A DNA stretch of 64,000 nt from Terebella lapidaria (lineage: Eukaryota > Annelida > Polychaeta > Terebellida > Terebellidae): contig OX424564.1 of NCBI GenBank assembly GCA_949152475.1, positions 29,696,165 through 29,760,164 on the forward strand, in the 5' to 3' direction. Below are positions 5,844 to 61,500 of this stretch, piece after piece. Both the position numbers and the translations under genes were made by a program. The notes under the pieces were generated by a model. It saw only the letters and a program-made list of their open reading frames with translations, was not told the DNA's origin and did no database searches. Position 1 is the first letter of the stretch. Each line of letters opens with the position of its first letter.

Positions 5844-5852
5844 AACCACTGT

Positions 5853-18639: not shown

Positions 18640-18780
18640 ACAAAAACCCACCGTGTGACGTCGTAGCTAATCGTGGGATGATTACGATTAAATCGTTGAC
18701 CTGTTTGTTCCTGACACCCACAACAGTGGTATGAATAATGAAACCTAAAAGGTATTGGGGGAATTCCTTAGGAAGCCGCC
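18640..18780 (-). repeat. conserved intronic block of the amplified gene (old copy)
   Basis: About 105 bp aligns with 46,455-46,560, 55,375-55,480 and 40,700-40,795 (shared TAGCTAATCGTG, GACCTGTTTGTTS and ATAATGAAACCT). In the younger genes this lies inside the intron between the two coding exons. Confidence 0.7.
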
Positions 18781-25338: not shown

Positions 25339-25642
25339 ACACCTTAAATATTTGACATACAACCTGGCCCTAATACGAGTTAGGATACAAAACAACATGA
25401 GCTGTATATTTTCATAAAAATGCACAACTCAGAAAGCAAAGAAGGAAAATGCTGGATTTTTTTGATACTCTTTTCTGAGAAAAAAAATGATGTCTTTCTG
25501 ATCATAAAATCCACACCGAATAGTGAAGACCTGAATTATATGGTAAAATGACACGTCATTTCCATAAAAAATTCTGGAAAGATAAATGTTTCCTCTCAAT
25601 ATATGACGACACAGAATATACTGGTAGATTTTGTTTTGTTAC

Positions 25643-25745
25643 CATTCGAGTCGTAGATATAGCCGTGACTGTAAGATTGAAGAATTTCAGCTGAAGAATG
25701 CCAGAGCACAGAGGAGCAGGATGATCACCAGTTGTGGTATGTTCA
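25643..25745 (-). pseudogene. decayed signal-peptide exon of the EGF-like gene
   Basis: Clearly homologous to exon 1 at 46,944-47,049 (shared CAACTGGTGATCA and CTGCTCCTCTGTGCTCTGGC, which encode the hydrophobic core). The start codon is not kept and the frame is broken downstream. It is followed at 25,800-26,100 by the same upstream sequence as the younger units. Confidence 0.85.
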
Positions 25746-25799
25746 ATGTGTTCCATTTGTGGAAGTAGAGCGAGGAATAAATAATTACAGTTTATTTCA

Positions 25800-26450
25800 T
25801 GATTTGTCCTAAACATTATCATGTGACTGTTCTGTCAAATTTAATTTAAAGTTTGCTTGAATGTTTTATATAGCAATTTCGTTTTTACAGATTTGTATAA
25901 AATATCTGACTGTTGACTGACTCCTACCATACACCGTACTCTTTTTAAATCATCAGCCTTATCTATATCATATCTATATCCCATCCCTAGGGCTATGTCT
26001 ATGTGGGCATGGCGACATCCAGCAGTATGTACGTACAATATGTTCCACGTAACTACATTACAAGACGCGTGACATGAGCTGGTGTACCACATTATACCGG
26101 TAGACAATAGCAAATGGCAAACGCTATATAAAGTGAACGAATCAGATTGTAAATGTATTGTGAATGTCTACTCCAAGAGTAGTATGTTTCACCGAAAAAA
26201 CAGAAAATGGGAACACGGGGCAATGCATATCATGAACATGATGAGTCTCCATGAAAAAAAAATCCAATCCAATTTATCAAAGTTTATTATAAATTGTTTT
26301 ATTATAAATTTATTATACACCGTTTATTATAAATTTATTATACACCTACACAAGTACTAATGTCAGCAATATGAGACATGTGGAGCGAAATATAGAAATA
26401 ATGTAATAAAGGTCCAACAAGAGAAGAGTTGCAGAATTAGTGCTCTTTAA
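25800..26450 (+). repeat. amplified locus, gene-upstream block (old copy)
   Basis: Aligns with 41,270-41,860 and 47,130-47,710 (GACTGACTNMYATACACC, AAATCATCAG and CTCGGGCTACGGCTATG-like words). It contains a TTTATTATAAATT stretch at 26,278-26,345. Confidence 0.65.
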
Positions 26451-40600: not shown

Positions 40601-40609
40601 TCTGGATGA

Positions 40610-41199
40610 ATTCAGACACCATGCGGGCATCCGAAGAGATAAAGTATGTTAACAGAAAGCTCAATGCCGTTTGTACCTGTGGATATCACGGTAAAAGAAC
40701 CCAGAGACGCCGTAGCTAATCGTGAAATTATTGCGAATAAATCTTTGACCTGTTTGTTGATGACACTCCCACCAGTGGTATGGATATAGAAAGCTGAATG
40801 CCATTGTGGAATTTCCCTCTGAGGCCCCACTTTTATAACGCTATCAATCTCACGTTGATCACGTGTTTTTTTTATATGTGGGAGTGTTTTTCAGCCACAA
40901 TGTTTTGATGATCATGCGGCAGTCACGAAAAGAAATGGAAATAACTGGATTTTATTTCTGCGACACACCCATATAGCCTATGAAAAAAAAATCATGTCTT
41001 AATTACTTAATTACAAAATTCACGCTGAAAAGGCCTGGAATGTCACTATCAAAATATCACTAAATACTGACTAGAGTATGTTTTGTTATTCACCATTCGG
41101 TTCGTCGTAGAGATAGCCGTCACTGTATGATTGAGTAGTTCATGTGAAGAACGCCAGAGCACAGAGGAGCAGACTGATCACCAGTTGCGATAGGTTTAT
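40610..41199 (-). pseudogene. decayed copy of the EGF-like gene lacking its second exon
   Basis: 41,094-41,199 is homologous to the signal-peptide exon, and 40,610-40,800 to the intronic block. The segment with the EGF-like exon is deleted at about 40,260. The first exon lacks an ATG and has a stop within it. The donor-like GGTGAATAAC is still present. This copy cannot make the secreted protein. Confidence 0.85.
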
Positions 41200-42499
41200 T
41201 GTGTTCTATCTGATCAATGAGGAGTAAATACTTCATTATAGTGTATCTCCCATGTTTTAGATATTCAGTTGTAACTGTTTTGTGAATTTGTTTGGTATGT
41301 GTTATGATAAAATATCCGAATGTTGGCTGATTTTTGCATTTGGCATGATATCAACGAGCCGTAGCTAGAGGATCTTTGATAAAATATCTCCAGTCACGAA
41401 TGCTTTGGCAATAAATATGGTTTTTATATTTTATACTAGTATATCTCACTATTCACTGACTAACATACACCACACGCTTTCTAAATCATCAGACATATTT
41501 ATATCTAATCCATGTCCCTTCTCTCGGGCTACGGCTATGCAGGAATTGTGGCAATACATTCTACATATAATAACATCACATGATGCATAACATGGCATGA
41601 TGTATTGCAGTATACAAGCAAGCTATACTCTATGATCAAATTGGATTCTAAATTCATTGGTGAATATTTCTCCTAGTAGTAGTATGATTTATAGACATAT
41701 TATGAAAGAATGAAAATGGAGTAATGCATAACACATTAATGAATCTTGATTCATCAAATCTACTAAAGTTGATAGTACATGTACAAGTATACTTGTGTTA
41801 ATATTATGAGCTATATGTAGTGAAATATAAAAGTAATGTAAAAGGGTCTAAGAACGAAAGTATTGCAAACCTGTTGGTCTTTAAAGGCCGTTCATTACAT
41901 GAGGTCAAGAATATTCAACATGAATTGTTAATAGCAACAAGGGAGCAAGTTTCAGTCTGATTTGATCCCTCATTCAGAAATTCCACTGTGACCTTTCAAT
42001 TCATCTCTGATATTCAAGACAATTAATCGCCAATATTTTTCACACATCCTTAAGCGGAACGTGCAACACCTTAAATGTGGGCCAGTTTGTTCTAGCAGGC
42101 AAACACGATTGGCAAAAAATGAAAACCTCATGTTTTATTTGAGGTTTGTTTTGCTCTCTTTTAAAATGGTACTGTTGGCATTTCCCTGATACGAATAAAG
42201 CACCATTTCTTCATTGTTCGGTTGACAAAAAGGTACACTGAAAGGCTAGCAGATGCTAACAACATTTGAAATTGTCTAAATGTGGCCGCCTCGAGCGCCA
42301 TGGAGATTCAGTTTTAGATCCCTAGATAGCGCCTCAAGCGTCAGGACAAAAACAATCGATGTTCGAGACAACAATTCCACAGACTGTAGTACCCCAACAT
42401 GTAATCATCAATATTGCAGAAGATGTCGAGATTGAATTTAGATGGTGCTTGCTTATACAATTCACTGTGAATCATGCTGTGGAAAAATGACGTGTTTTT

Positions 42500-42720
42500 C
42501 CGTGGCTGAGTGGATAGGACTGATGGCTTATGAACATAGAAGCAACTGAGTAGAGATGTGGTTGGTGACGTGGGTTCGAATCCCCGGCACATTGTAGGTG
42601 GTTTCTGCATCAAATGCGCTTTCGAAATTCTAATTTGTCAGTCAATGGGCGATGGTGAAGACAGGCACATCGTGGATCGTCGTTGAACAAATCTGATTAT
42701 TATTATCCTTATTGTTATTT
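42500..42720 (+). mobile_element. tRNA-derived SINE (copy 1)
   Basis: A tRNA-Ser/Leu-like head has an A box (TGGCTGAGTGGAT, 42,503) and a B box (GGTTCGAATCC, 42,574), then a body ending in a CTGATTATTATTATCCTTATT tail. It occupies the same position in four units, so it was amplified with the locus after one insertion. Confidence 0.75.
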
Positions 42721-45267
42721 CTGGATTTGAATAATCAACATTTGGTATGGTATTTTTAATGCAAGTCTTCACTGCGTTTCTTTGAATCGATTCATCTTGT
42801 TTCTAGCAAGTGGGCTAAATCTTTAAAGTGTACCACGGATCAGAATGTTCATTTTCAAAGAAATATTTTTGACCATCACTTTTTTGCTATCCTTTTGATT
42901 CGGAACAAATACAGTACAAAATACAATACAGAAAATACAACACAAGAGCATATACATGCCACACACTTTACCTCACTTCATGAAAACATCATTCTCGGTG
43001 ATTATATATGAAGGCATTTTAGATATCTATTCTAAGACGAAAACTTGCTGCGTTGTTTTTTTTCATACACACGAGAACTTACTGTTCACTGCAAAGTAGG
43101 CACCAAACACGTAGTACAAATTTCGATTGCGGTGAAGTTTGAAGTACTTGCTCCTCAAAGTATACAATGTGTTCATACATTCCCAGAAGTACAATAATAT
43201 TTGGTAACATATAAAAGTGAATATGCTATAAATGAATAAAAAACAGAATTTCGTATCGATTTCAGCCAACTATCTTCATTTGCCAATTGCAACAGAGTAC
43301 AGAAATAATAATGAGTTTGTATTTTCTTTACATTTTTGGGAGGTTTTCGGTACATGCGTGATATATAATCGACCAAATAATCACGATAAATGTGCTAGTG
43401 ATAATGGGGTTTCCCCATGTGCGTCGAGTTATTGCGATCTTTATTACTCAAACGTACGGGAGAAACATCGGAAAAGACCAAAGCAAAATTAATTCATGTT
43501 TGTTCGCAGTGGGTGTGTAATTAATTATTAGGAGGTAATGCTGCCCTAAATACCAAAGTCATGTGCTGAAATACAAGTTTTAACTAGGTCAACATAGTTC
43601 TAAAAATACATGACACCATAACGAAATAATTGATTATTACATTCTGGAGGTAAATGCTACAGTGAAGATGAAAAGTTTGTTTTGTTTTTCACACGAACTG
43701 AATTATATTTAGATAATTGACCTATGGGTAACGCTGTTAGCAAAACGCAAGTCAATTTTTAAAATCAGTACTACATGTAGTAGCATAGAATGTCAACACA
43801 CCAATTGATATTCGTCCGCAATAATAATGCTCAGTTTGTTACATATTCTTCATATCACCTGAATAATTTGCGGTGACCTTAAGGTCAATAACTTGCCCGG
43901 TCTTGGCAAGAAAGAAAATGGCAGTAGATTGCAGCAGATGACCCTCGACAGCTGGAGAACAATTAAGCGACAAATTGTGCACGTTTGGCGCTTATGAACA
44001 TATCTTCAATTATTTACGATCTCCTGGCATGACTCGCAGGACCTTGCTTCATCGTGTTACGAGCTTTCCTAAATGCTGAACCGCGTCGAGACGATTCAAC
44101 GATTGCGTCGAAACAGATTCCCAACACCTGAAAGCTGAAATAATTATTACAATCCTGCACGCCAAACATTGTAATGACGTGCCATCAAAAATGACCACAG
44201 AGCATAGCCTCGTTCTTGTATGATAGCTACTCGTGGACTCCCACCTCACCCAGTCTTTCAGTGTCATGGCCTGCCCAAGGTGGACACATAACGTAAAATT
44301 GGATGCGCAAAAAGAAAACTGCCCTAATTATTATATTTTAAGCCATTTCCTTGATTCCGCCACTGTAATTGAGTTCATCACACGACGAGTATTACGTACA
44401 TAGATATGCATGTAATTGTATTGTCGAAGAATTTTCTACACCTAACCATACAAGGCATATATGGCACGACTGGACCATGAAAAATTATGTACTCTGATTT
44501 AATTGCTCTTATCCAATGATACAGTTTCACAAAATAAATTTTTTTGGATTGTATATCATTGCAATTACATGCAGTTGGATACAGTTTTGATCATTCATCA
44601 TCATACATTTTGTTCAAATCCCACGTGCTACCAGCAGTCTGAGGTATAATCCAGTATGGCTCTAACTTTTATGTTGATTATGATTGCAAGCTTACAACGA
44701 AGACCACATTGCATTTCTGCTGTTCGCTTGAGCGACCCCCCCCCCCCTGCAGTGGATAGGTGTGGTTTCTTTGCTGCCCAATTAAGGAAATGATATAAAT
44801 ATTGAATAATGTTAATAGATTGCAACACGCTCAATCTAGTACCTGTAACTATAGGAACTCGCTAAATGTGGCCGTAATCTGGTAATAATACTTAAATGTA
44901 GGTCTGCTAAATGGCATTAATTATATCGAAATTCTGTGATTTCTATAGATTTCCATTGAATTTCACGTTTAGTTCTTGCCTACTTGCATAAAGTTGCTGA
45001 GGTTTCGGAAATTCAAACATTGAGTTCGGAAATTTTCATGGACATAAATGTAATAAGAGGACATTTTCCGCCTGTATGTGCAGCAAATATTAACACAACG
45101 AAATTATTGGGCATCACAATTGTGTACATTCCTTCCACATCGCAACGACATGAAATTCATACTTATTTATTCGTACCACAAAAACAATATACATGTGTAC
45201 TATTTTCCACATAACATTTTTTGGTTAACAAAGTTACCAATTTATTCACATCTTATCTAAACATCTA

Positions 45268-45275
45268 CGAGTAAC
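45268..45275 (-). promoter_or_regulatory. candidate polyadenylation signal of EGF-like gene copy 1
   Basis: AATAAA on the - strand about 340 bases after the stop at 45,614. An equivalent site lies in the second copy. Confidence 0.3.
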
Positions 45276-45613
45276 AATTTATTAAAATTAATGCTCGCTA
45301 TTCCAAGCACTCACGATTGCCACAACCTATTACAATATGTTATTATACACGAAATAAATGATAGCGTGAGTCCAATTATAATGTCTCAACAAGCGATCAT
45401 TCACAATTCATACACTGACAAAGATTAGATTATATTTTTAAAAATCACATGGAGAATTCAACACAAAAGCACATAACAAACGCACAAATATGCGAATACA
45501 AGCAAAAACCTAAATTTTCCCTTATTTGGAAAATCTGTACGCCTGGGAGTTGGAGCGGCAGTACGGATTTCCCCTCGGAACTCCTCACATCCCAACTCGA
45601 TCAGTCAAATGCC

Positions 45614-45918
45614 TCAAATGTCATATGGGGAATCCCATCGAAGCCCATCTATGACGTCATCGTCGCTCCCGTGCACTCGCTTATCCCTACTCCATGGATA
45701 CCGCTTCTTAAGGCTCTCAGCCAAGTACCCACACTCGGGTCCTAGCCAGCGTGGCGAACACACGCAGACGCAGAAGCGACCGGCCTTTGTCATCGTCTTG
45801 CGTGGTCCACGGCCGCCGTGCAGGCATCGCGCGAGGTGGTCGTGGCCGTTACACGGGAAGGCTACCCGCTTCATGCCGACAGCACGTGACTGTCGGATGA
45901 ACTCCTCTGTCAACTCGC
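45614..45918 (-). CDS. exon 2 of EGF-like gene copy 1 (EGF core)
   Basis: 101 codons including the stop, in phase 1 after the acceptor at 45,919-45,921. It is far GC-richer than the surrounding DNA. Compared with 54,529-54,833 it has six base differences, all at synonymous third positions (Gly, Arg, Thr, Pro, Ala, His codons). Confidence 0.8.
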
Positions 45919-47049
45919 CTGGAAATATAGAATAAGCGCAAACTGAAATATAGGAACTTCTGAAATGAATATACTTAATATTGAATACTAGTATTATTTT
46001 AAAACGTGAAAAAAATGTTTTTTTTTTTCAAAACACTATTCTTGAAATGAATAAGCTGAGAATTGCGCTGTCAATAGAGAATTAAGAATCCTTAGAAGGG
46101 GAGAACAGCCGGTGATGTGCTGTCAAGAAATCTAGATTAGTGAACCAAGATTGTACCATACAATTAGCCTATCTAACAAGATTGGAGAATATGAAAAATA
46201 TATATTCCTGATTTCGGTATATTCCTTCACGATTATTTTTTTATTGTTGATTGTAATGGACATAACGCTTCGGGTTTGCAAACATGAGCTTTCAATCTGA
46301 GACCAACGACCTGCAAATTAAACGCATCATGTCACATTCTCATGAACACTGATGAATTCTGAGTGAATTCAGACACCTTTCGGGCAACAGAGGAGAAAAT
46401 TTATGCTAACAGAGAGCTCAATGTCGTTTGTACCCGTGGATATCGCGGTAAAAACCCCAGGGACGCCGTAGCTAATCGTGAGATGATTACGAATAAATCT
46501 TTGACCTGTTTGTTGACGACACTTCTGTCGATGATATGAATAATGAAACCTGTATGACATTAGGGGATTTCCCTGGGAGGCCGACCATTTATCGCTGTCA
46601 TTGTCACGTAGAGGAACGTGCTTCTAGTCAGAATAATCGATTGTGTTTTTTTATTTGTGGGCGTGCTTTTCACCAACTGTGTTTTAATGATCATAGTAAG
46701 TGGTAAACTGAGTTGGGTTGATAACAATTCGAGCTGTATAGTGACATCCATAAATCAGAGCAAACAAATGAGAAATAACTGAACTCGCTACACTCAGATT
46801 TATCCTATGAAAAAATACTTTGAGGTCTTTCTGGATATAAATTCCACACTAAAAGGCATAACATTCCAGGATCGGAATGTCACTTGTGATGCAAAATGTA
46901 CTCACAGAGTAAAATACTGACTAGAGTTTGTGTTCTTACTCACCATTTGGTTCGTCGTAGAGATAGCCGTCACCATAAGATTGAGTAGTTCCTGTGAAGA
47001 ACGCCAGAGCACAGAGGAGCAGGCTGATCACCAGTTGCGATAGGTTCAT
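45614..47049 (-). CDS. secreted EGF-like peptide precursor, copy 1 (two coding exons)
   Basis: Exon 1 (47,049-46,944) encodes 35 residues: MNLSQLVISLLLCALAFFTG is a signal peptide with probable cleavage after TTQS (residue 24), then YGDGYLYDEPN. The donor is G|GTGAGT, phase 1. The acceptor TTTCCAG precedes exon 2 (45,918-45,614), phase 1. The precursor is 136 residues with no membrane segment after the signal. Six cysteines (58, 67, 85, 87, 89, 98) include CVCSPRWLGPEC, which fits the EGF pattern C-x-C-x5-G-x2-C, while the third EGF cysteine is displaced (LHGGR where LHGGxC is usual). Basic sites KR (52-53), KKR (106-108) and KR (115-116) flank the core and could be cut by prohormone convertases. 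A secreted ligand role is inferred. The gene is inside an amplified locus. TTATTTCTCAG just before the 5' leader may mark an upstream noncoding exon. Confidence 0.78.
46369..46575 (-). other. conserved intronic block, possible alternative exon
   Basis: Conserved with 55,270-55,490, 40,610-40,800 and 18,640-18,780. A CAG (46,561-46,563) precedes a frame containing NKQVKDLF and ISRLATASLG. However, the oldest copy differs mainly by amino-acid-changing substitutions, and no donor keeps phase 1 to the EGF exon. I treat it as intronic. Confidence 0.4.
46944..47049 (-). CDS. exon 1 of EGF-like gene copy 1 (signal peptide)
   Basis: 106 bases, ATG at 47,049, donor ATG|GTGAGTAAG. The leader before the ATG is ATAGAACACA, preceded by an acceptor-like TTATTTCTCAG. 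Confidence 0.8.
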
Positions 47050-47059
47050 TGTGTTCTAT

Positions 47060-49133
47060 CTGAGAAATAACAGCGAGAAGAAAATACTTTATTATAGTGT
47101 ATCTCCCATGTTTTGTCTTAGATATTCAGTTGTAACTGTTTTGTGAATTTGTTTGTATGTGTTATGATAAAATATTCGAATGTTGGCTGATTTTTGCATT
47201 TGGCATGATATCAATGAGCCGTAGCTAGAGGATTGTTGATAATATATGTCCAGTCAAGAAAGCTTTGGCAATAAATTTGCTTCTTATATTTTATACTAGT
47301 ATATCTCACTATTCACTGACTAACATACACCGCACGCTTTCTAAATCATCAGACATATTTATATCTAATCCATGTCCCGTCCCTCGGGCTACGGCTATGA
47401 AGGCATTGTGGCAATACATTCTACATATAATAACATCACATGATGCATAACATGGCATGATGTATTGCAGTATACAAGCAAGCTCTACTCAATGATCGAA
47501 TTGGATTCTAGATTTATTATAGGTGAATATTTCTGCTAGTAGTAGTATGATTTATAGACATATTATGAAAGAATGAAAATGGAGTAATGCATAACACATT
47601 AATGAATCTTGATTCATCAAATCTACTAAAGTTGATAGTACATGTACAAGTATACTTGTGTTAACATTATGAGCTATATGTAGTGAAATATAAAAGTAAT
47701 GTAAAAGGGTCTAAGAACGAAAGTGTTGTAAACTTGTTGGTCTTCAAAATCCGATCATTACGTGAGGTCATGAATATTCAACATGAATTGTTAATAGCAA
47801 CAAGGGAGCAAATTCCAGTTTGATTTGATTCTTCATTCAGAAATTCCACTGCACAGTTCTGATATTCAAGACAGTTATCGCCAATATAGACTTTTTACAC
47901 ATCCTTAAGCGGAACATGCAACACCTTAAATGTGGGATAGTTTGTTTCAGCAGACAAACACAATTGGCAAAACATGAAAACCTCATGTTTTATTTGAGGT
48001 TTGTTTTGCTCTCTTTTAAAATGGTACTGTTGGCATTTCCCTGATACGAATAAAGCACCATTTCTTCATTGTTCGGTTGACAAAAAGGTACACTGAAAGG
48101 CTAGCAGATGCTAACAACATTTGAAATTGTCTAAATGTGGCCGCCTCAAGCACCATGGAGATTCAGTTTTAGATCCCTGGATAGCGCCTTAAGCGTCCGG
48201 ACAGAAACAATCGTTGTTCGAGACAACAATTCCACTGACTGTAGTACCCCAATATGTAGACATCAATATTGCAGAAGATGTCGAGATTGAATTTAGATGG
48301 TGCTTGCTTATACAATTCACTTTGAATCATGCTGTGGAAAAATGACGTGTTTTTCCGTGGCTGAGTGGATAGGACTGGTGGCTTAAGAACATAGAAGAAG
48401 CGGCGACGTACAGATGCAGTGGGTGACGTGGGTTCGAATCCACGGCACATTGTAGGTGGTTTCGACGGGCGATGGTGAGACAGGCACAATTACCTATTAT
48501 CATGGATCATCGTTGAACAAATCTGATTATAATTATCCTTATTGTTATTTCTGGATTTGACTAATCAACATTTGGGATGGTACTTTTTAATGCAATTCTT
48601 CAGTGCATTTATTCGAATCGATTCATCTTGTTTCTAGCAAGTGGGCTAAATCTTTGAAGTGTACCACGGATCAGAATGTTCATGTTTAAAAAATATTTTT
48701 GACCATCACTTTCTTGATATCCTTTTGTTTCGGAATAAATACAATAGAAAAATACAATACAAACAATACAATACAAGAGCATAGACATGCCAACACTTTA
48801 CCTGTATGAAAACATCATTCTCGATGACTATATATAAAGGCATTTCAGATATCTACGCTAAGACGAAAACTTGCTGCGTTGCTCTTTTCATACACGCGAG
48901 AACTTACTGTTCACTGGAAAGTAGGCACCGAACACGTATATAGCACAAATCTCGATTGTGGTGAAGTTTGGGATGCTTGCTCCTCAAAACATACAATGTG
49001 CTCATTCATTCCCAGAAGTACAATAATATTTGGAAACATATAAAAAGTGAATAGGGTATAAATAGATATAAACAGTTCTACGTTTATATTGATCTTAGCC
49101 AACTATCTTCATTTGCTAATTGCTAAGTGCAGA
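47060..49133 (+). repeat. amplified locus, young unit 2 (upstream of gene copy 1)
   Basis: Collinear with 41,210-43,290. It ends at 49,133 within the CATTTGCTAATTGC region and is joined directly to another upstream block at 49,134, so the gene body expected there is missing. Confidence 0.85.
48356..48545 (+). mobile_element. tRNA-derived SINE (copy 2)
   Basis: The same head and tail as at 42,500, with a 3' body partly lost. The B box GGTTCGAATCC is at 48,430. Confidence 0.7.
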
Positions 49134-52100
49134 TATAACTGTTTTGTGAATTTGGTTGTATGTTTTATGATAGAACATTCGAATGTTGACTGATTTTTGT
49201 ATTTGTCATAATATCAACGAGCCGTAGCTAGAGGATTGTTGATAAAATATCTCCAGTCATGAAAGCTTTGGCAATAAATTTGGGTTTTAAATTTTATACT
49301 AATATATCTCACCATCGACTGACTACCATACACCACACGCTCTCTAAATCATCAGACATATTTATATCTAATCCATGTCCCGTCTCTCGGGCTACGGCTA
49401 TGCAGGCATTGTGGCAATACACTCTACATAATTACATCACATGATGCATAACATGACATGATGTATTGCAGTATACAAGCATGCTATACTCAATGATCGA
49501 ACTGGATTCTAAATTTATTGGTGAATACTTCTTCTAGTAGTGGTATGATTTATGTAAATATTGGGAAAGAATGGAAAGGGAGTAATGCATAACATGATGA
49601 ATCTTGATTCATCAAATCTACTGAAGTTGATAGTACATGTACAAGTATACTACTGTTAATTTTTTTAGCTATATGGAGTGAAATAAAAAAAGTGATGTAA
49701 TAAAGGTCTAAGAACGAAAGTGTTGCGAATTGGTTGATCTTTAAAAGCCGTTCATTACATGAGATCATGAATATTCAACATGAATTGTTAAAAGCAACAA
49801 AGGAGCAAGTTCCAGTCTGATTTGATTCTTCATTCAGAATTCCACTGTGACCTTTCAATACAGTTCTGATATTCAAGACAGTTAAACTCCAATATAGACT
49901 TTTTACACATCTTTACGCGGAACGTGCAACACCTTAAATGTGGGCTGGTTTGTTTTAGCAGACAAACACAATTGGCAAAAAATGAAAACCTTATGTTTTA
50001 TTCGAGGTTTGTTTTGCTCTCTTTCAAAATGGTACTGTTAGCATTTCCCTGATACGAATAAAGCACCATTTCTTCATTGTGCGCTTGACAAGAAGACACA
50101 CTGAAAGGCTAGCAGATGGTAACCACATTTTGAATTGTCTAATTGTGGCCGCCTCGAGCGCCATGGAGATTCAGTTTTAGATCCCTAGATAGCGCCTTAA
50201 GCATCAGGACAAAAACAATCGATGTTCGAGACAACAATTCCACAGACTGTAGTACCCCAACATGTAGTCATCAATGATGCAGAAGATGTCGAGATTGAAT
50301 TTAGATGGTGCTTGCTTATACAATTCTTTGGTGTCTTTGGATAAACTATTTGGTCGGGCTTTGTTTCTATTCCAAGATGTTCTATTTTACGTTTGTTTTT
50401 GGCATCATCAAAATCTGACTATTGGTGGAAATAGATTGATACTTACATTCACTGTGAATCATGCTGTGGAAAAATGGCGTGTTTTTCCCTGGCTGAGTGG
50501 ATAGGACTGAGTACAGATGTGGTTGGTGACGTGGGTTCGAATCCCCGGCACACTGTAGGTGGTTTCTGCATCAAATGCGCTTTCGAAATTCTAATTTGTC
50601 AGTCAATGGGCAATGGTGAAGACAGGCACATCGTGGATCGTCGTTGAACAAATCTGATTATTATTATCCTTATTGTTATTTCTGGATTTGAATAATCAAC
50701 ATTTGGTATGGTATTTCTAATGCAAGTCTTCACTGCGTTTCTTTGAATCGATTCATCTTGTTTCTAGCAAGTGGGCTAAATCTTTAAAGTGTACCACGGA
50801 TCAGAATGTTCATTTTCAAAGAAATATTTTTGACCATCACTTTTTTGCTATCCTTTTGATTCGGAACAAATACAGTACAAAATACAATACAGAAAATACA
50901 ACACAAGAGCATATACATGCCACACACTTTACCTCACTCCGTATATGAAAACATCATTCTCGGTGATTATATATGAAGGCATTTTAGATATCTACTCTAA
51001 GACGAAAACTTACTGCGTTGTTTTTTTTTTATACACACGAGAACTTACTCTTCACTGCAAAGTAGGCACCAAACACGTAGTACAAATTTCGATTGCGGTG
51101 AAGTTTGAAGTACTTGCTCCTCAAAGTATACAATGTGTTCATACATTCCCAGAAGTACAATAATATTTGGTAACATATAAAAGTGAATATGCTATAAATA
51201 AATAAAAAACAGAATTTCGTATCGATTTCAGCCAACTATCTTCATTTGCCAATTGCAACAGAGTACAGAAATAATAATGAGTTTGTATTTTCTTTACATT
51301 TTTGGGAGGTTTTCGGTACATGCGTGATATATAATCGCCCAAATAATCACGAAATTTGTGCTAGTGATAGTGGGGTTTCCCCATGTGCGTCGAGTTAATT
51401 GCGATCTTTATTACTCAAACGTACGGGAGAAACATCGGAAAAGACCAAAGCAAAATTAATTCATGTTTGTTCGCAGTGGGTGTGTAATTAATTATTAGGA
51501 GGTAATGCTGCCCTAAATACCAAAGTCATGTGCTGAAATACAAGTTTTAACTAGGTCAACATAGTTCTAAAAATACATGATACCATAACGAAATAATTGA
51601 TTATTACATTCTGGAGGTAAATGCTACAGTGAAGATGAAAAGTGTGTTTTGTTTTTCACACGAACTGAATTATATTTAGATAATTGACCTATGGGTAACA
51701 CTAATAGCAAAACGTTAGTCAATTTTTAAAATCAGTACTACATGTAGTAGCATAGAATGTCAACACACCAATTGATATTCGTCCGCAATAATAATGCTCA
51801 GTTTGTTACATATTCTTCATATCACCTGAATAATTTGCGGTGACCTTAAGGTCAATAACTTGCCCGGTCTTGGCAAGAAAGAAAATGGCAGTAGATTGCA
51901 GCAGATGACCCTCGACAGCTTGAGAACAATTAAGCGACAAATTGTGCACGTTTGGCGCTTATGAACATATCTTCAATTATTCCCAACACAGATTGGGAAT
52001 TGCGAAACAGATTCCCAACACCTGAAAGCTGAAATAATTATTACAATCCTGCATGCCAAACATTGTAATGACGTGCCATCAAAAATGACCACAGAGCATA

Positions 52101-52414
52101 GCCTCGTTCTTGTATGATAGCTACTCGTGGACTCCCACCTCACCCAGTCTTTCAGTGTCATGAGTGGCCTGCCCAGGGTGGACACATAACGTAAAATTGG
52201 ATGCGCAAAAAGAACACTGCCCTAATTAATATATTTTAAGCCATTTCCTTGATTCCGCCACTGTAATTGAGTTCATTACAGGACGAGTATTACGTACATA
52301 GATATGCATGTAATTGTATTGTCAAAGAATTTTCTACACCTAACCATACAAGGCATATATGGCACGACTGGACCTTGAAAAATTATGTACTCTGATTTAT
52401 TTGCTCTAATTCAA
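49134..52414 (+). repeat. amplified locus, young unit 3
   Basis: 49,134-50,320 matches 41,270-42,450. 50,322-50,447 is an extra 126 bp not found at 42,450 or 48,310 but related to 36,900-36,965. 50,450-52,414 matches 42,470-44,515 closely, with a small deletion near 51,985 that removes the sequence corresponding to 44,015-44,110. Confidence 0.88.
50486..50700 (+). mobile_element. tRNA-derived SINE (copy 3)
   Basis: Head GGCTGAGTGGATAGGACTG with a short internal deletion, B box at 50,534, same tail as copy 1. Confidence 0.72.
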
Positions 52415-53418
52415 TAGACGTGGAATCAATACCCAGTATCAAGTATTCCGAGCAAACAAAACAGGGTCCGTTATCCAATCTCATAGTCCGGGGACAGAAA
52501 GTCATATCAGGCATACGAAGTGAGAGAAAACAAAAATGACAGGGAAACTCATGAACCCCCGTAAATGGCCATCAGGAGGTGAAATCAGGTATTCCGGAAA
52601 GAGTGAGCATTTCCTGCCCCACTAGTGGCACCCGTCATGAATTCCCCAAAATTAACATGAAAATAGATCTAGTTGCATGGCAGACATGGATTTGCTGTAT
52701 TTATCAACCAGATCATGATGACGTCCATAGAATTTCTTAAACGCAGCGATAAGTCTTGGTAAAACATATCCTTGTCGTAGCAGTTTAGAGACTAGCTGGG
52801 CACTTCGATAGACAAAGTCCTCATATTTGCAACTAGCTCTGGAATAGCGTATAAGTTGAGAAACAAACACACCATATGCCGGTGACATAGGAATGTTGCT
52901 GCTTAGAAAAGGGAAATTGACTATGGAAAAATTGAAATCATCACGTTTGTCATATAATCTAGTTGACAGGTTAGAATCATTATCAATCTCCAACCTCAGG
53001 TCTAGATAGTTGGAAAAATTAGCGGATTCTGTAGTATCCTTAATTTCAAGTTCCTTAGGATATATGACATCCAAATAATCACCAAACTTGGGATTATTTA
53101 GCGACAATACATCATCTATGTATCGGAAAGTGAAATTAAAATTACATGTTAGTTTCTTAGAACCTCCTCTTTGTAAATGTTGGATAAAATCTGATTCATA
53201 TGAGTATAAAAACAGGTCTGCCAATAATGGTGCACAGTTTGTACCCATGGGAATACCAATAGTTTGTTGAAATATTCGACCACCAAATTCCACAAAAATA
53301 TTATCAATCAGAACATTAACCATATTTACCACATCTATTTCAGTATATTTGTATGGGGCATCAGAGTCGCCTTTAACAAAATAAGCGGTATTATATTTAA
53401 CTACAATATAGTGTAGTT
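52415..53418 (-). mobile_element. Penelope-like (probable) retroelement, 5'-truncated, longest copy
   Basis: The 3' end starts with the same TAGACGTGG word as the copies at 22,903 and 33,039. A 226-codon reverse transcriptase piece lies at 52,652-53,332. The homologous unit at 44,515 shows the unoccupied site, where TTGCTCTTATCCAATGATACAG is continuous. ATGATACAGTTTCA is doubled at the right border (53,419-53,446). The other end has a small inverted repeat TTAACTACA / TGTAGTTAA. Confidence 0.8.
52652..53332 (-). CDS. reverse transcriptase fragment (Penelope-like, tentative)
   Basis: Motifs in order: GGRIFQQTIGIPMGTNCAP (about residues 17-35), LLADLFLYSYE (36-46), FRYIDDVLSLNN (69-80, catalytic YIDD), then LEIKDT, SNYLDLRLEID, FPFLSSNIPMSPAYGVFVSQ and KKFYGRHHDLVDKY. 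The frame continues upstream without a Met for about 25 codons (for example YFVKGDSDAPYKYTEID). The N-terminal part of the enzyme is missing by 5' truncation. No GIY-YIG endonuclease is visible. The PMGxxxAP and YIDD combination suits Penelope-like elements, but I cannot exclude another non-LTR class. Confidence 0.7.
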   Translation of the reverse strand: MVNMVNVLIDNIFVEFGGRIFQQTIGIPMGTNCAPLLADLFLYSYESDFIQHLQRGGSKKLTCNFNFTFRYIDDVLSLNNPKFGDYLDVIYPKELEIKDTTESANFSNYLDLRLEIDNDSNLSTRLYDKRDDFNFSIVNFPFLSSNIPMSPAYGVFVSQLIRYSRASCKYEDFVYRSAQLVSKLLRQGYVLPRLIAAFKKFYGRHHDLVDKYSKSMSAMQLDLFSC

Positions 53419-53446
53419 AAATGATACAGTTTCAATGATACAGTTT

Positions 53447-54500
53447 CACAAAATAAAACTTTTTGGATTGTATATCATTGTAAATACATTCAGTTGGATA
53501 CCGTTTTGATCATTCATCATCATACATTTTGTTCAAATCCCACGTGCTACCAGCAATCTGAGGTATAATCCAGTATGGCTCTAACTTTTATGTTGATTAT
53601 GATTGCAAGCTTACAACGAAGACCACATTGCATTTCTGCTGTTCGCTTGAGTGACCTCCCCCTGCAGTGGATAGGTGTGGTTTCTTCGCTGCCCAATTCA
53701 GGAGAAGAGGTGAACATTGAATAATGTCAATAGATTGCAACACGCTCAATCTAGTACCTGTAACTATAGGAACTCGCTAAATGTGGCCGTAATCTGGTAA
53801 TAATACTTAAATGTAGGTCTGCTAAATGGCATTAATTATATCGAAATTCTGTGATTTCTATAGATTTCCATTGAATTTCACATTTAGTTCTTGCCTACTT
53901 GCATAAAGTTGCCAAGGTTTCGGAAACTTAATCATTGAGTTCGGAAATTTACATGGACATAAATGTCATGAGAGGACACTTTCCGCCTGTATGTGCAGCA
54001 AATATTAACACAACGAAATTATTGGGCATCACAATTGTGTACATTCCTTCCACATCGCAACGACATGAAATTCATACTTATTTATTCGTACCACAAAAAC
54101 AATATACATGTGTACTATTTTCCACATAACATTTTTTGGTTAACAAAGTTACCAATTTATTCACATCTTATCTAAACATCTACAAGTAACAATTTATTAA
54201 AATTAATGCTCGCTATTCCAAGCACTCACGATTGCCACAACCTATTACAATATGTTATTATGCACGAAATAAATGATAGCGTGAGTCCAATTATAGTGTC
54301 TCAACAAGCGATCATTCACAATTCATACACTGACAAAGATTAGATTATATTTTTAAAAATCACATGGAGAATTCAACACAAAAGCACATAACAAACGCAC
54401 AAATATGCGAATACAAGCAAAAACCTAAACTTTCCCTTATTTGGAAAATCTGTACGCCTGGGAGTTGGAGCGGCAGTACGGATTTCCCCTCGGAAGTCCT
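53447..54500 (+). repeat. amplified locus, 3' flank of gene copy 2
   Basis: Nearly identical to 44,520-45,585. No gene was recognised. The equivalent AATAAA (- strand) of the first copy is present near 54,185. Confidence 0.88.
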
Positions 54501-54528
54501 CACATCCCAACTGGATCAGTCAAATGCC

Positions 54529-54833
54529 TCAAATGTCATATGGGGAATCCCATCGAAGCCCATCTATGACGTCATCGTCGCTCCCGTGCACTCGCTTATC
54601 CCTACTCCATGGATACCGCTTCTTAAGGCTCTCAGCCAAGTACCCACACTCGGGCCCTAGCCAGCGTGGCGAACACACGCAGACGCAGAAACGACCGGCC
54701 TTTGTCATTGTCTTGCGCGGTCCACGGCCGCCGTGCAGGCATCGTGCGAGATGGTCGTGGCCGTTACACGGGAAGGCTACCCGCTTCATGCCGACAGCAC
54801 GTGACTGTCGGATGAACTCCTCTGTCAACTCGC
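54529..54833 (-). CDS. exon 2 of EGF-like gene copy 2 (EGF core)
   Basis: Phase 1 acceptor at 54,834-54,836. Protein-identical to 45,614-45,918. Confidence 0.8.
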
Positions 54834-55965
54834 CTGGAAATATAGAATAAGGGCAAACTGAGATATAGGAACTTCTGAAATGAATATACTTAATATTGAA
54901 TACTAGTATTATTTTAAAACGTAAAAAAGTTTTCAAAACACTATTCTTGAAATGAATAAGCTGAGAATTGCGCTGTCAATAGAGCATTATGAATCCTTAG
55001 AAGGGGAGAACAGCCGGTGATGTGCTGTCAAGAACTCCAGATTAGTGAACCAAGATTATATCATACAATTAGCCTATCTAGCAAGGTTGGAGAAGATGAA
55101 AAATATACATTCTTGATTTCAGTATATTCCTTTACGATTATCATGATTATTGTTTTTATTGTTATGTAATTGTGATGGACATAACACTTCGGGTTTGCAA
55201 ACATGAGCTTTTCATCTGAGACCAACGACCTGCAAAATCAAACCCATCATGTCACATTCTCATGATCACTTATGAATTCTGAGTGAATTCAGACACCTTT
55301 CGGGCAACAGAGGAGGAAAATTTATGCTAATAGAGAGCTCATTGTCGTTTGTACCCGTGGATATCGCGGTAAAAACCCCAGAGACGCCGTAGCTAATCGT
55401 GAGATGATTGCGAATAAATCTTTGACCTGTTTGTTGACGACACTTCTGTCGATGATATGAATAATGAAACCTGTATGACATTAGGGGATTTCTCTGGGAG
55501 GCCGACCATTATCGCTGTCATTGTCACGTAGAGGAACGTGCTTCTATTCAGATTGATCGATTGTGCTTTTTTATCTGTGGGCGTGCTTTTCACCCACTGT
55601 GTTTTAATGATAATAGTAAGTGGTGAACTGAGTTAGGTTGATAACAATTCGAGCTGTATGGTGATATCCATAAGTCAGAACAAACAGATGAGAAAAGACT
55701 GAATTCGCTACACTCAGATTAAGCTTATGAAAAAATACTTTGAGGTCTTTCTGGATATGAATTCCACACTAAAAGGCCCAACATTCCAGGATCGGAATGT
55801 CACTTGTGATGCAAAATGTACTCACAGAGTAAAATACTAGAGTATGTTTTGTTACTCACCATGCGGTTCGTCGTAGAGATAGCCGTCACTGTATGATTGA
55901 GTAGTTCCTGTGAAGAACGCCAGAGCACAGAGGAGCAGGCTGATCACCAGTTGCGATAGGTTCAT
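54529..55965 (-). CDS. secreted EGF-like peptide precursor, copy 2 (two coding exons)
   Basis: Same structure as the gene at 45,614-47,049. Exon 1 is 55,965-55,860 (donor G|GTGAGT) and exon 2 is 54,833-54,529 (acceptor TTTCCAG). The intron is 1,026 bases against 1,025 in the other copy. The predicted 136-residue product differs from copy 1 at only two places, both just after the signal peptide: YS for YG and PH for PN. The EGF-like core, cysteines 58-98 and all dibasic sites are identical. The paired phases, intact signals and silent-only changes in exon 2 suggest both copies are functional. It could be a growth-factor-like or antimicrobial secreted peptide. The receptor and tissue are unknown. 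Confidence 0.78.
55860..55965 (-). CDS. exon 1 of EGF-like gene copy 2 (signal peptide)
   Basis: ATG at 55,965, hydrophobic core LVISLLLCALAFF, donor CATG|GTGAGT. The upstream leader is identical to copy 1. Confidence 0.8.
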
Positions 55966-56889
55966 TGTGTTCTATCTGAGAAATAACAGCGAGAAGGAAA
56001 TACTTCATTATAGTGCATCGCTCATGTTTTTTCACCTGCGGCTGTTTTCTCACTATAATAGGTTTTGTTCGTAAGTATTATAATAGAACATTCGATTGGT
56101 ACTGGCTTTGTATATGTCATAATATATCCAATTGAGAATTGGATTCTAAATTTATTGGTGAATGTTTCTTCCAGTAGTAGTATGATTTATGGACATACCG
56201 TTAAAAAATGAAAATGGAGTAATTCGTAACATGATGTGAGTTGATTCATCAAGTTTACTGAAGTTGATAGTGCATTGTACCACTGTGAAATGTACCACTG
56301 TAAAGATTATGAGCTATACGGAGTGAAATATCGACATCTATATATAACGACAAATATAAAAGTAATGTAATAAAAGTTTAACAACGAAAGATTTGCAAAC
56401 TTGTTATTTTTCTTTAAATGCCGTTCATTACACGAGGTCATGAATATTCAACATGAGCTAGTTTGTATTAGCACACAAACACAATACCTTCTGTTTCATT
56501 TAAGGTTTGTTTTGCTCTCTTTTAAAATGTTACTGTTGGCATACTCTGATACTAATAAAGCACCATTTCTACATTGTGTGGTTGACAAAAATTATACAAT
56601 GAAAGGCTAGCAGATGTTAACGACATTTTACGTTGTCTAAATGTGGCCGCCTCGAGCGCCATAGACATGATAGAGATTTAGTATTAGATCCCTAGAGAGC
56701 GCCATAAGCATCCAGACCCAAACATCCGTTGTTCGAGACAACAATTTCACTGACTTTTATAGCACCTCAGTATGTAGTCAATAATAGTCAGAAGAAGTCG
56801 AGATTGAATTTAGATCCTGCCTGCTTTTAAAATTCAATTTGAGTCATGCTGTAAGACGTCATTTTCTAAAAAAAACAAAATGACGTGTT

Positions 56890-57060
56890 TTCTCCATAAC
56901 CGAGTGGATAGCACTGTTGGCTCTTGAACATCGAAGCAACGAAGTACAAATGCGGTAGGTGACGTGGGTTCGAATCTCGTCACTGGCACATAGTAGGTGG
57001 TTTCGTCGTTGAATAAATCTGATTATTATTATCCTTATTGTTATTTCTTGATTTCGCTAA
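56890..57060 (+). mobile_element. tRNA-derived SINE (copy 4)
   Basis: Diverged A-box region (CCGAGTGGATAGCAC) and B box GGTTCGAATC at 56,968. The tail CTGATTATTATTATCCTTATT is conserved. Confidence 0.7.
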
Positions 57061-57189
57061 TCAGCATTCATGATGGTACTTTATAATGCAAGTCTTCACT
57101 ACATTTCTTTACACGAATTCACCTTGTCCCTGCCTTTCCTGATATTCTTAGACGTTTTTTTCAGAGCAAAAACCTTTTCTGAGAAGCAA

Positions 57190-57600
57190 CATTCCGAGGT
57201 CACCAGCATATATGGTGTGTTTGTCTCACAACTAATACGCTCTTCCAGAGCTAGTTGCAAATATGAGGAATTTGTTCACACAAGTTCCTAACTATTCTCT
57301 AAATTGCTGCGCCAATGATTTGTTTTACCAAGACTAAGTGCTGCGTTCAAGAGATTCTATGGACGTCATCACGATCTAGTCGATTCTACACCAAATCTGT
57401 GAGTAGTATGAAGCAGGATTTATTTGCACAATAAAATTTTTCGGAATTGTTGACGGGTGCCACGTGTGGGGCAGGAAATGCTCATTCTTTCCGGAACACC
57501 CGATTTCACCTCCTTATGGCCATACAGTTACACGGTCGTTCATGAAGTTCCATAATCGATTTTGGTTGACACCGGACTTTGAGATTGGAAAGTGAACATC
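57190..57600 (+). mobile_element. Penelope-like (probable) retroelement fragment, degraded, + strand
   Basis: Matches the C-terminal coding part and 3' region of the 52,415 element in the opposite orientation (YGVFVSQLIRSSRASCKYE; then GGGGCAGGAAATGCTCATTC). It is older than the 52-kb copy. Confidence 0.7.
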
Positions 57601-58530
57601 GCTTGTGTTGCTTATGTTTAAGCATGTTTATTTCAACACTTTACCTCATTTTGTATATGAAAACATCGATCTTGATGGCTATAAAGGCATTTTAGAACTG
57701 CACTGTAAGACGGAAACTTGCTGAATTATTTTTTTTCATATACACGATACCTTACTGTTCAATGCAAATAAGCACCATACACGTAGCTCATATCGTGATT
57801 ATGGTGGAGTTCGGAATGCTTGCCCGTCAAAATATACAATGTGCTCATTCATGTCCAGAAATACAATAATATTTGGAAACCATTAAACAGATGAAAAAGT
57901 GAATATGGTGTAAATAACAAAAAAACAGTTCTACGTGTACGTGTTTATCGATTTTAGCCAACTATCTTAATTTGCTAATTGCAACAGAGCGCAGATAATA
58001 ATAATTATCTTTGCATTTTTTAGTTGGTGGTCATATGTGAATATAATCGGCCAAATAATCAGGATAAATGTGCTAGTCGTAATGGGGTATCCCCATGTGC
58101 GTCGAGTTAATGGCGATTTTTATTATTCCATCATACGGGATAAACATCGGAAGACACCAAAACATAATTAATTCATGATGGTTCATAGTGTGTGTGTAAT
58201 TAGTTATTACGAGGTAATGCTGCCCTAAATACCAAAGCCATTTGCGGAAATACAAGTTGTAAGTAGGTTAGCATAGTTCAGCATAGATGATACAATAACT
58301 GAATAATTGCTTGTTGTATTATGAAGGTAAAAGTTACAGTGTAGATGAAACTTTCATTTTGCTTTACACACGAAGTGAATAGTAATGCTCAGTTTCTTAC
58401 ATAAGCTTCATATCATATTAATAATTGGCGGTGGTCATAAGGTCAATAACTTTATAGCCCGGATTTACAAGAAATGGCAGTAGATTGCAGCGGATGACCC
58501 TTGACTGGCTGATGAACAATTAGGCGACAA

Positions 58531-61500
58531 ATTGTGCACATGCGGCGCTTGTGAGCATATCTTCTGTTATTTGCGATTTCCCTGTATGACTCACAGGGCC
58601 TCATTGCTTTACCGTGTCGCAAGATTTTTCAAATGCTAAAACACATCAGAACAAAACTTCCGTATCAAACAGATTCCCAACACATGAATGATGAACGAGA
58701 CATTCGTGGTTTCCTTGCTGCCCTATTAAGGAATCGAAGTAGTATAAAACTTTAACAAACACGTCCTTCTTTGATTCCCATACTCCGAAGGCGTGAAATA
58801 TAGTTCTTATTTGGTGATGATTAAAAAGGAAGTGACTTGCGTTATAATTGAACTCAGTACACTTAGGTACACTCGCTAAGATAAATAGGCGCATGATTAT
58901 GGCATTTAATTTGTCGCATTTTCACTCAAGTTTCACGTTCTCATTTCATGGCATAATTCGACAGCTTTGTTAACAGGGACGTACATTTCTTATTTTTTAT
59001 TCAATAAAACAGAAGTGTCGGTTCATTCGTCATAGATACTAAATACTATGACTTATACAGGCATGGAAGGCAAAACCAAACACCGCTTATGACAAAGGAT
59101 CACTCCAATATAAATGTATGAACCTGTCGCCGGGAACGTTAAAATTAATGCACAAAAGCAAAAAAGAAGCACTATCAACGCGATATGGAATTATTACATG
59201 TGAGTCCTAAAATTCGGAGTCAATACAATATACTGAAAGAAAACAGCGATATGCTAGATTGATACTTACATACATACCATAACTTCTGGAACCATTTTTC
59301 TAAATTCAAAATACCAATCGATCCTAAAATAACGCAAAAATCTACATAATTACACGGTTGAATCTGCGGACCTGATTATAACCGATTGCATGGTGTCGTA
59401 TCTGCCTCTATTTATAATTTACATAAAATGCAATACAGTAATTGCAATAGGCCTACATCTGTCCGTCCGGGGGCTTTAGATTAAACGAATACAAACCAAC
59501 CGGTGCCCTCTTCATTATGCATGTCTTTTAGATTGCTTCCGACACCCCCATCCAACTGTAGTAGTGGAATCGCATTCTGCCTTGCAAATTGTGTGGCTTG
59601 TGAATTTTTTTTTCATTTTTTTTTCATCTTGGAAATCGCAGGATGACTGAATATCGTGACATTTGAGCGAGCTGACGTGTATTTTCCTAATGAGAAAGTC
59701 ACTTCATTACATACACTATACTTTTACCACTCCCGCTGCATTTACAACGATCATGCGTAAGGTTTTATTATGATAGAAATACCATTAGTCGTCATGTGCA
59801 CAAGACAGTGAAACTTTCTGACGTAACAGAAACTGAAGTTGCTTTCCATGCCATAAACATGATTGGTGATTTGATCAGACAAGTATGCGCATACAGTCAT
59901 GATTCAATTTGACTGATGTGTCGCTGCTTTTTGCATGAAGTCAGTCCAGCAGCCCAGATCACACCCCCTCCCTTTCCTCCGCATATTCCGCTGTCGAGAT
60001 AATTCCAGTCATAATTTCCAACTGTTATATTAGTAGATCCCAACAAATGGACGTGAATAACGTGTCAAACCATGTTGTATTTTTTATGTGGACACTATCA
60101 CCGGGGTCAGAAACCACCGGATGTACCAAAAGCAATTGACGGCACGATGTACAGCTATTTCACTAGCACAAAGATGTTGAAAATATTTGCACGCATAGTC
60201 AAGTTCAAATCAAAACGTGAAATGATTTTACCCCATGAATGTCATGAAAACTGTATAAAAACACATTTTTCACTAAATTTCCCAAAACTGGCAATCGATG
60301 TAAATGTTAGCCCCCCCAAGCCCCCCCCCCCCCCCCAAGTGGAAAATCAATGCCCATGGTACACACGACATGTACACTGTATGAAATATTGTGAATCGAT
60401 TCAGCCGACAAAACAATAAGAACAGGTTTTATAGTCATCGATAACATGATCTATATATATATATATGTACAAAGTGCTGTAATAATGTTATGTTTAGCAC
60501 ACATATATTGGAGAGTTTTGTAAATCCTTTTTGTCAATTATCATACTGGATAGCGATTCTTTGAATTCAAATAAATACATCCAATTGAAGTCGACTAGAA
60601 ACAAAAATTTACTTTAATATCGGATTGAGTGCGTTAGAAGAGACCTACAATAATCGTGTCCAAAATACATCTCAGCGATTTTGGTTCGTTGTAAAGTTAA
60701 TTTCAATATCACAAATCCCGCATTAGATATTCGGCTTACTTACATCTTTTGTAGTTCGATGACTTTGTTCTTGCTGGGCAATCCGATTGTTAATAAAATG
60801 AAAAAGGAACAATCACATATATTTCCTATTCACAGTTGCTTCACACAAGTTGTTGGACGTTCTCAGCTCCTCTCGTAGGTTACTCCGTGTTTTATTCCCA
60901 ACCAGATGGAGGAAAAGTTTCCCACAACTATTTATCCAATGGTAAACTTGGTTATCCGCCTGGTATTAGTAATAGCCATATCCCCGTAGGCTGGTCACTT
61001 CTGTTCCCTTCAAGTCAAGTCCTCTCCCCAATCGACCTCCTCCCACTTGCTTTACGCCGCAGGGAGATGACGAAAGCCAGAATGTAGAGCAAGAATCACC
61101 CCCTCTCTCCGATAAACAACCGCTCCCCCCGCCCGGATGCACTTGATGATCAATAACTAACGCCTCCCTCCAAAGGCGACACCCATTTGTGACGCCAACG
61201 ATATGATAGGTGCCATTCTACGGTCACCAAACCGGTGGCAGCAGAAACTCCATCGGACCAATACCATTTCCTGCTCATATCCCGTCTGGAAGTCTTCTAC
61301 CGTCGGGGGAAAGACCATCATATCTTGTGTGCCTGGGCGTGCAGCCATCGCTTGTCAACTTAGCGTTGTCATATTTTAGCGGGTGATGCTTACCAGAAAG
61401 AGGGCACTGAAGTTGGACAGTTACCGAAGATCTATTTACTGTCTCGATGTCCACTTAGGCTTGACATTGACCTGTGTTACTTTTCCCCATTATGTCTACT

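What the first reader, a model, noticed from the sequence alone, without database searches (positions are those of the whole stretch)
45614..55965. Tandemly amplified small secreted EGF-like gene with silent-only divergence in its core exon
Two complete two-exon genes encode a 136-residue precursor. Their 305-bp EGF exons differ at six sites, all synonymous, while the flanking copies have also diverged. Exon 1 differs by two amino acids just after the signal peptide. This points to purifying selection on the core and possible change in the N-terminal segment.
Basis: partly seen in the sequence, partly recalled or inferred. Interest (0 to 1): 0.82.

Follow-up and report, generated by a model that had tools for sequence, protein, structure and literature searches.

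The report
Duplicated gene for small secreted peptide
Two nearly identical neighbouring genes in an invertebrate animal appear to make the same small secreted cysteine-rich, partly EGF-like peptide, kept unchanged in its core by selection and left over from a larger, mostly decayed gene cluster; it is a plausible orphan signalling peptide, not an extraordinary one.

Summary
Two minus-strand genes, 8.9 kb apart, each have two coding exons with GT-AG sites and encode 136 residues. Their 305-bp second exons differ at six third-position transitions, all silent (dN 0, dS 0.09; chance of 6 of 6 silent 0.0002-0.001). Exon 1 has three silent and two amino-acid changes (dN/dS about 0.2), so special change in the N-terminus is not supported. 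The six changes are also silent in an overlapping antisense frame, so silence alone does not name the coding strand; splice sites, a signal-like N-terminus and the cysteine pattern favour the minus strand. The array is larger than reported: a dead third exon 1 (41.1 kb), older relics (25.7 and 18.2-18.9 kb), and an upstream block with nine matches, all local; two complete second exons were found in 761 Mb. 'EGF-like' is half supported: C-x-C-x8-C fits, but Pfam is sub-threshold, the usual third cysteine is absent, alignment to human EGF is no better than cysteine-keeping shuffles, and the low-confidence models do not look like EGF. Best reading: a lineage-restricted, probably KR-processed secreted cysteine-rich signalling peptide in a birth-and-death tandem array.

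The parts
46944..47049 (-). Copy A coding exon 1: ATG, hydrophobic signal-like N-terminus, first base of codon 36
   Evidence: donor GTGAGTAAG
45919..46943 (-). Copy A intron (1025 bp, phase 1)
   Evidence: 58 of 1010 aligned sites differ from B
45614..45918 (-). Copy A exon 2: six-cysteine core, KR sites, C-terminal acidic tail, stop
   Evidence: same protein stretch as B, six silent differences
55860..55965 (-). Copy B coding exon 1
54834..55859 (-). Copy B intron
54529..54833 (-). Copy B exon 2
45240..45613 (-). Probable 3' UTR of copy A, with AATAAA hexamers beginning at 45283 and 45246
   Evidence: 6 of 354 sites (45260-45613) differ from B; extent inferred
41094..41199 (-). Copy C exon 1, dead: ATG reads ATA and codon 20 is TGA; exon 2 not found
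40250..40855 (-). Copy C intron remnant, 22% different from A
25609..25817 (-). Older exon-1 relic with similarity before the start; start lost, frame broken
18204..18929 (-). Older relic: intron stretches 18446-18929 and the start of an exon 2 (18204-18263, VAFPC motif) followed by a stop
41266..44139 (-). Upstream block next to copy C, unit of the local array
47127..49123 (-). Upstream block of copy A
49130..51981 (-). Further upstream block without its own exon 1
56136..58695 (-). Upstream block of copy B, about 71-87% identical to the others in the aligned pieces
52416..53432 (-). About 1 kb holding a reverse-transcriptase fragment, present beside B and absent from the equivalent place beside A
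   Evidence: RVT_1 E 0.0024, 18 bits, under the cut-off of 29.6
45609..45935 (+). Antisense 108-aa ORF, identical in both copies, no Pfam match; probably a by-product of coinciding wobble positions

Best explanation
A pair of intact, recently duplicated genes for one small secreted cysteine-rich peptide, the survivors of a local birth-and-death tandem array. Inferred mechanism: the N-terminus directs secretion; a proprotein convertase cuts after MKR and KKR, perhaps DKR, releasing a roughly 50-residue core (VAFPC...ESL) held by three disulphides; its C-terminal half resembles the end of an EGF domain (C-x-C-x8-C), with the usual third cysteine replaced by one two residues before the fourth. 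It acts outside the cell, most likely as a diffusible ligand. Shown by sequence: open spliced frames, silent-only core, local array and decay. Inferred: expression, secretion, cleavage, disulphides, ligand role.
For: Open spliced frames with GT-AG sites in both copies; dN 0 and dS 0.091 in exon 2; exon 2 GC 0.59 and exon 1 GC 0.49 against 0.36 in intron and 0.35 in 3' flank; most hydrophobic 19-residue stretches start at residues 1-3 (mean 1.76-1.91), and none starting after residue 25 exceeds 0.82; dibasic sites at 52, 106-107 and 115 bracket cysteines 58-98; C-x-C-x8-C signature only at the two genes in six frames of 64 kb, 0.025 expected; two exon 2 copies and three close exon 1 copies found in 761 Mb; upstream block with 9 matches, all in the window.
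Against: No transcript, peptide or homologue in another species was available. Pfam EGF_2 sub-threshold. Human EGF alignment score 32 is reached by 254 of 2000 cysteine-keeping shuffles and 101 of 2000 full shuffles. AlphaFold models weak (pLDDT 50.5 and 67.7) with an alpha/beta layout; no EGF protein among the 50 Foldseek rows listed of 699, none with E <= 0.001. A further dibasic pair (RK at 75) lies inside the core. The silent pattern fits an antisense frame equally. One paper states that all known EGF ligands are made as transmembrane precursors, though it also lists soluble candidates. One pair of copies is a small sample.
Confidence: 0.5

Rival explanations
1. Real secreted cysteine-rich peptide, but not EGF-like: an orphan disulphide scaffold used in defence, mucus, shell or venom, where the C-x-C-x8-C match is coincidence.
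For: Sub-threshold Pfam, alignment to EGF no better than shuffles, models not EGF-shaped, local tandem array with dead copies.
Against: For the core, EGF is the best family in Pfam (E 0.034) and the only PDB sequence match at E <= 10 (P-selectin EGF, E 0.44); signature expected 0.025 times per window. The core is unchanged between copies, unlike many fast-changing defence or venom peptides (recalled).
Confidence: 0.3
2. The two copies look alike because of gene conversion or a very young duplication, and constraint on the protein is weak.
For: Divergence is patchy: 0.5% to 10% in 200-bp bins inside the duplicon and 20-24% at its edges; 528 of 2231 windows are as similar as exon 2; blocks of 98%, 96%, 95% and 90% identity adjoin.
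Against: Synonymous divergence in exon 2 (0.091) is not below intron divergence (0.057); conversion cannot remove only the amino-acid changes.
Confidence: 0.12
3. The antisense ORF (45609-45935, +) is the coding frame.
For: Identical 108-aa product in both copies; six changes silent there too; P for six silent transitions 0.0013, the same as in the sense frame.
Against: Sense and antisense wobble positions coincide, so silence in one tends to give silence in the other; no Pfam match; the sense strand has phased splice sites and a signal-like exon 1 that recurs in copies A, B and C.
Confidence: 0.03
4. False tandem duplication: two haplotypes of one locus joined in the assembly.
For: 2-6% divergence is within heterozygosity of some marine invertebrates (recalled); 41.3-49.1 kb and 49.1-58.7 kb are roughly colinear.
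Against: Upstream blocks of A and B differ by about 13-27% in the aligned pieces, much for alleles; other degraded units surround them.
Confidence: 0.05

Closest known systems
Secreted EGF-type ligands without a membrane anchor (Lymnaea L-EGF; planarian Smed-egf-6 and -7)
   Same: Small secreted precursor with one cysteine-rich core and no later strongly hydrophobic segment. L-EGF is described as secreted and signalling through an ErbB-type receptor (passages of PMC4210270); Smed-egf-6 and -7 as secreted without transmembrane domain (passages of PMC4914847). Their sequences were not compared here.
   Different: Usual third cysteine absent, extra cysteine two residues before the fourth; residue before the last cysteine is Glu, where EGFR ligands carry Arg (recalled); no sequence match to EGF families beyond the C-terminal motif.
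P-selectin EGF domain (PDB 1fsb)
   Same: Only PDB sequence match of the core at E <= 10, aligned over the last three cysteines (GRFCVCVCSPRWLGPECGYLAE with GNYTCSCYPGFYGPECEYVRE).
   Different: E 0.44, 22 residues only; a domain of a large adhesion protein (recalled).

Membership tests
EGF-like domain | Match to a curated EGF profile above cut-off | tested here: not met
   EGF_2 13.1 and 14.9 bits, cut-off 22.1
EGF-like domain | C-terminal signature C-x-C-x(2)-{V}-x(2)-G-{C}-x-C (PROSITE PS00022, recalled) | tested here: met
   CVCSPRWLGPEC; the only two six-frame hits in the window are genes A and B
EGF-like domain | Six cysteines at EGF spacing, with the third four to six residues after the second (recalled) | tested here: not met
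   Cysteines 58, 67, 85, 87, 89, 98: 17 residues between the second and third
EGF-like domain | EGF fold and C1-C3, C2-C4, C5-C6 disulphides (recalled) | tested here: inconclusive
   Models of pLDDT 50.5 and 67.7; only the second was searched, no EGF protein in the 50 listed Foldseek rows; too weak to decide; disulphides not measured
EGFR (ErbB) ligand | Arg just before the sixth cysteine and Leu about five residues after it (recalled) | tested here: not met
   Sequence reads GPEC-GYLAESL: Glu before; Leu at +3 and +7
EGFR (ErbB) ligand | Binds and activates an ErbB receptor | not testable with these tools
   No assay
Processed secreted peptide precursor | Signal peptide, dibasic cleavage sites, no transmembrane segment | tested here: inconclusive
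   Hydrophobic N-terminus, KR at 52, KKR at 106-108, KR at 115, no 19-mer starting after residue 25 above 0.82; no signal-peptide predictor or peptidomics

The most novel reading that the evidence does not exclude
A lineage-specific peptide hormone built on an EGF-derived core in which the third cysteine has moved next to the fourth (C-x-C-x-C), giving a new disulphide layout and freeing the peptide from ErbB receptors, kept as two identical-core genes in a decaying tandem array.
Probability: 0.15. Interest if true: 0.5.

Novelty: new member of a known kind. Interest (0 to 1): 0.3.

Why it matters
If right, it adds an orphan, probably processed secreted peptide with an unusual cysteine layout, in a compact array where dead and living copies sit side by side, a natural record of birth and decay. 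It also shows that silent-only divergence can be silent on both strands when wobble positions coincide, a caution for reading the coding strand from two copies.

Tried and rejected
Distant paralogues: a whole-genome protein search gave one extra weak place (C12:40384752-40384856, E 3.2; E 0.5 with the core only), which contains a TGA and shows no matching cysteine layout in the frames printed: rejected. A DNA pattern for C-x-C-x-C-x3-W-x-G gave 183 forward and 166 reverse places against 44 and 55 for the reversed control. Thirty of these 349 were fetched and translated: mostly microsatellites and simple repeats; of the 28 whose pattern start was placed, none has a cysteine at the sixth position. 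The other 319 were not translated. No relative of exon 2 (100 aa) among viral contigs (10 pattern stretches, 0 confirmed) or prokaryote genomes (99, 0 confirmed). Rfam: no match in the window at gathering scores. PDB matches of the whole protein: 9qkx_A, unnamed, E 5.1e-5, and KempTIM1, E 0.019; nominally the first is significant, but it is a sum of three short stretches with single E-values of 3.2 or worse over residues 41-72 and shares no cysteines in the printed alignment: taken as chance in an internally repeated protein. A haemocyanin family search meant to place the organism gave nothing, but no control rang either: uninformative. Constraint from copy C exon 1 (4 of 106 differences from B, 7 from A, against 22-23% in its intron) was considered and dropped, because the adjoining upstream block is also only 5% different.

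Full report
WHAT IS THERE. On the minus strand, copy A has coding exons 46944-47049 and 45614-45918, copy B 55860-55965 and 54529-54833. Joined, each gives 136 residues with a GT-AG intron of about 1 kb in phase 1. The two proteins differ only at residue 26 (G in A, S in B) and 35 (N in A, H in B). Exon 2 differs at 6 of 305 sites, all third-position transitions and all silent; exon 1 at 5 of 106 (3 silent, 2 not); the intron at 58 of 1010; the 3' flank at 34 of 1096; the 81 bp before the start codon at 18, since the close similarity ends there.

SELECTION. For exon 2, dS is 0.091 on 70 sites and dN 0 on 233; for exon 1, dS 0.129 and dN 0.026. The chance that six random changes in exon 2 are all silent is 1.6e-4 without transition bias and 1.2e-3 if only transitions are allowed. 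So the core looks to be under purifying selection, and exon 1 perhaps too, less clearly (3 of 5 silent, P 0.095-0.25). Taking the dead copy C as outgroup, A carries four of the five exon-1 changes (one amino acid) and B one (one amino acid); nothing points to a fast-changing N-terminus. Two cautions. First, overall similarity of exon 2 is not unusual for the duplicon: 528 of 2231 overlapping windows of the same length are as similar or more so. Second, the plus strand over exon 2 carries a 108-aa ORF that is also identical in both copies, because third positions of the two frames coincide; the same six changes are silent there. The minus strand is preferred for its splice sites, its signal-like exon 1, found in three copies, and the cysteine pattern.

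THE ARRAY. Searches of the 761-Mb assembly found two copies of exon 2 and, by protein, three of exon 1; by DNA an older exon-1 relic at 25.65-25.84 kb as well. Counts from this tool are lower bounds. Copy C (exon 1 at 41094-41199) has lost its ATG and has a TGA at codon 20, and no exon 2 was found for it. Older remains: exon 1 at 25609-25817, intron pieces at 23744-23856 and 18446-18929, and the first part of an exon 2 at 18204-18263, in the right order after its intron piece (tblastn E 0.011-0.017). Since the intron pieces at 18.4 and 23.7 kb cover the same part, at least two old copies are needed. A weak inverted 3' remnant (67.9% over 109 bp) lies 10 kb outside the window (74728-74834 in window numbering, L056). 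A 300-bp probe of the block upstream of the genes had 9 matches, full or partial, all between 20.4 and 56.7 kb of the window. The cluster is thus a local tandem array in which most units have decayed. The latest step appears to have copied 42545-47114 to 50506-56030 or the reverse (98, 96 and 95% identity by segment), with about 1 kb of a reverse-transcriptase fragment in the second place only. The upstream blocks of A and B differ by 13-27% in the aligned pieces, which speaks against two alleles of one locus, though no reads were available.

THE PROTEIN. The most hydrophobic 19-residue stretches start at residues 1-3; dibasic pairs occur at 52, 75, 106, 107 and 115; cysteines stand at 58, 67, 85, 87, 89 and 98, with one more at 13. 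The ending C-x-C-x8-C fits the EGF signature recalled from PROSITE and occurs nowhere else in the six frames of the window, with 0.025 expected in first-order Markov sequences (40 trials). But Pfam EGF_2 scores 13.1 bits for the whole protein and 14.9 for residues 50-110, cut-off 22.1; the only PDB sequence match of the core is the P-selectin EGF domain at E 0.44; a local alignment with human EGF (recalled letters) scores 32 over 14 residues, reached by 254 of 2000 shuffles that keep the cysteines and 101 of 2000 that do not. By eye, the CLHGGRG stretch resembles the CLHDGVC of human EGF, so a cysteine would be expected near residue 73; here it is glycine, and an extra cysteine stands at 85. 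AlphaFold gave pLDDT 50.5 for the whole protein (two sequences) and 67.7 for the core alone, with a beta-alpha-beta-beta-alpha layout; Foldseek on the core gave 699 matches at E <= 10, none at E <= 0.001, and no EGF protein among the 50 listed. These models are too weak to exclude an EGF fold, but they do not support one.

THE ORGANISM. A 16-kb contig carries mitochondrial cox1 with TGA as Trp, AGA at a conserved Ser, ATA at conserved Met positions and AAA at a conserved Lys, which fits code 5 and argues against echinoderm, ascidian and vertebrate codes (conserved positions and codes recalled). An invertebrate, probably a protostome; not placed further.

MECHANISM. Most likely the precursor is secreted, cut at KR sites and released as a disulphide-bonded peptide of about 50 residues that acts outside the cell. 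Secretion and cutting are inferred from sequence. A ligand role follows from the resemblance to secreted EGF-type ligands. The metazoan survey PMC4914847 says in its introduction that known EGF ligands are made as transmembrane precursors, but reports EGF-type candidates with no transmembrane region and two secreted planarian ligands (passages); Lymnaea L-EGF is described as secreted (passages of PMC4210270). The present protein should not be filed as an ErbB ligand: the Arg expected before the last cysteine is Glu (rule recalled). Defence, mucus, shell or venom roles remain open.

LITERATURE. Four searches of the held library were seen as listings, with passages of two papers. None could be aimed at this exact sequence, so no claim is made that it is unpublished.

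VERDICT. A correct observation; a probable pair of real genes; an EGF label that is half supported; moderate interest.

Noticed in passing
1-1254: 36-bp minisatellite, about 35 copies at 92% match, open in frame for 412 codons (NHTSVLTVHSPA-like repeat).
   Followed up: no
5394-7421: Two ORFs of what looks like a non-LTR element; the second matches RVT_1 at E 1.2e-38.
   Followed up: partly
15355-15728: Tandem pair of a 185-bp unit with 100% matches.
   Followed up: no
30269-31744: 239-nt inverted repeat arms, 98% complementary, 998 nt apart, in a GC-richer stretch: possible recent mobile element.
   Followed up: no
22902-23441 and 52414-52951: Two copies at 95% of the reverse-transcriptase-bearing repeat, with an inverted relative at 57173-57523.
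   Followed up: partly
47050-47100 and 55966-56016: Just before the start codon both genes read TTATTTCTCAG-ATAGAACACAATG, a fair splice acceptor, with TATAAT starting 35 bases before the A of CAG: either a hidden 5' exon or a TATA/initiator promoter; dead copy C has lost six bases there.
   Followed up: partly
L015, L016 (C417): A second contig carries cox1-like sequence in two pieces, perhaps a nuclear or variant mitochondrial copy.
   Followed up: no
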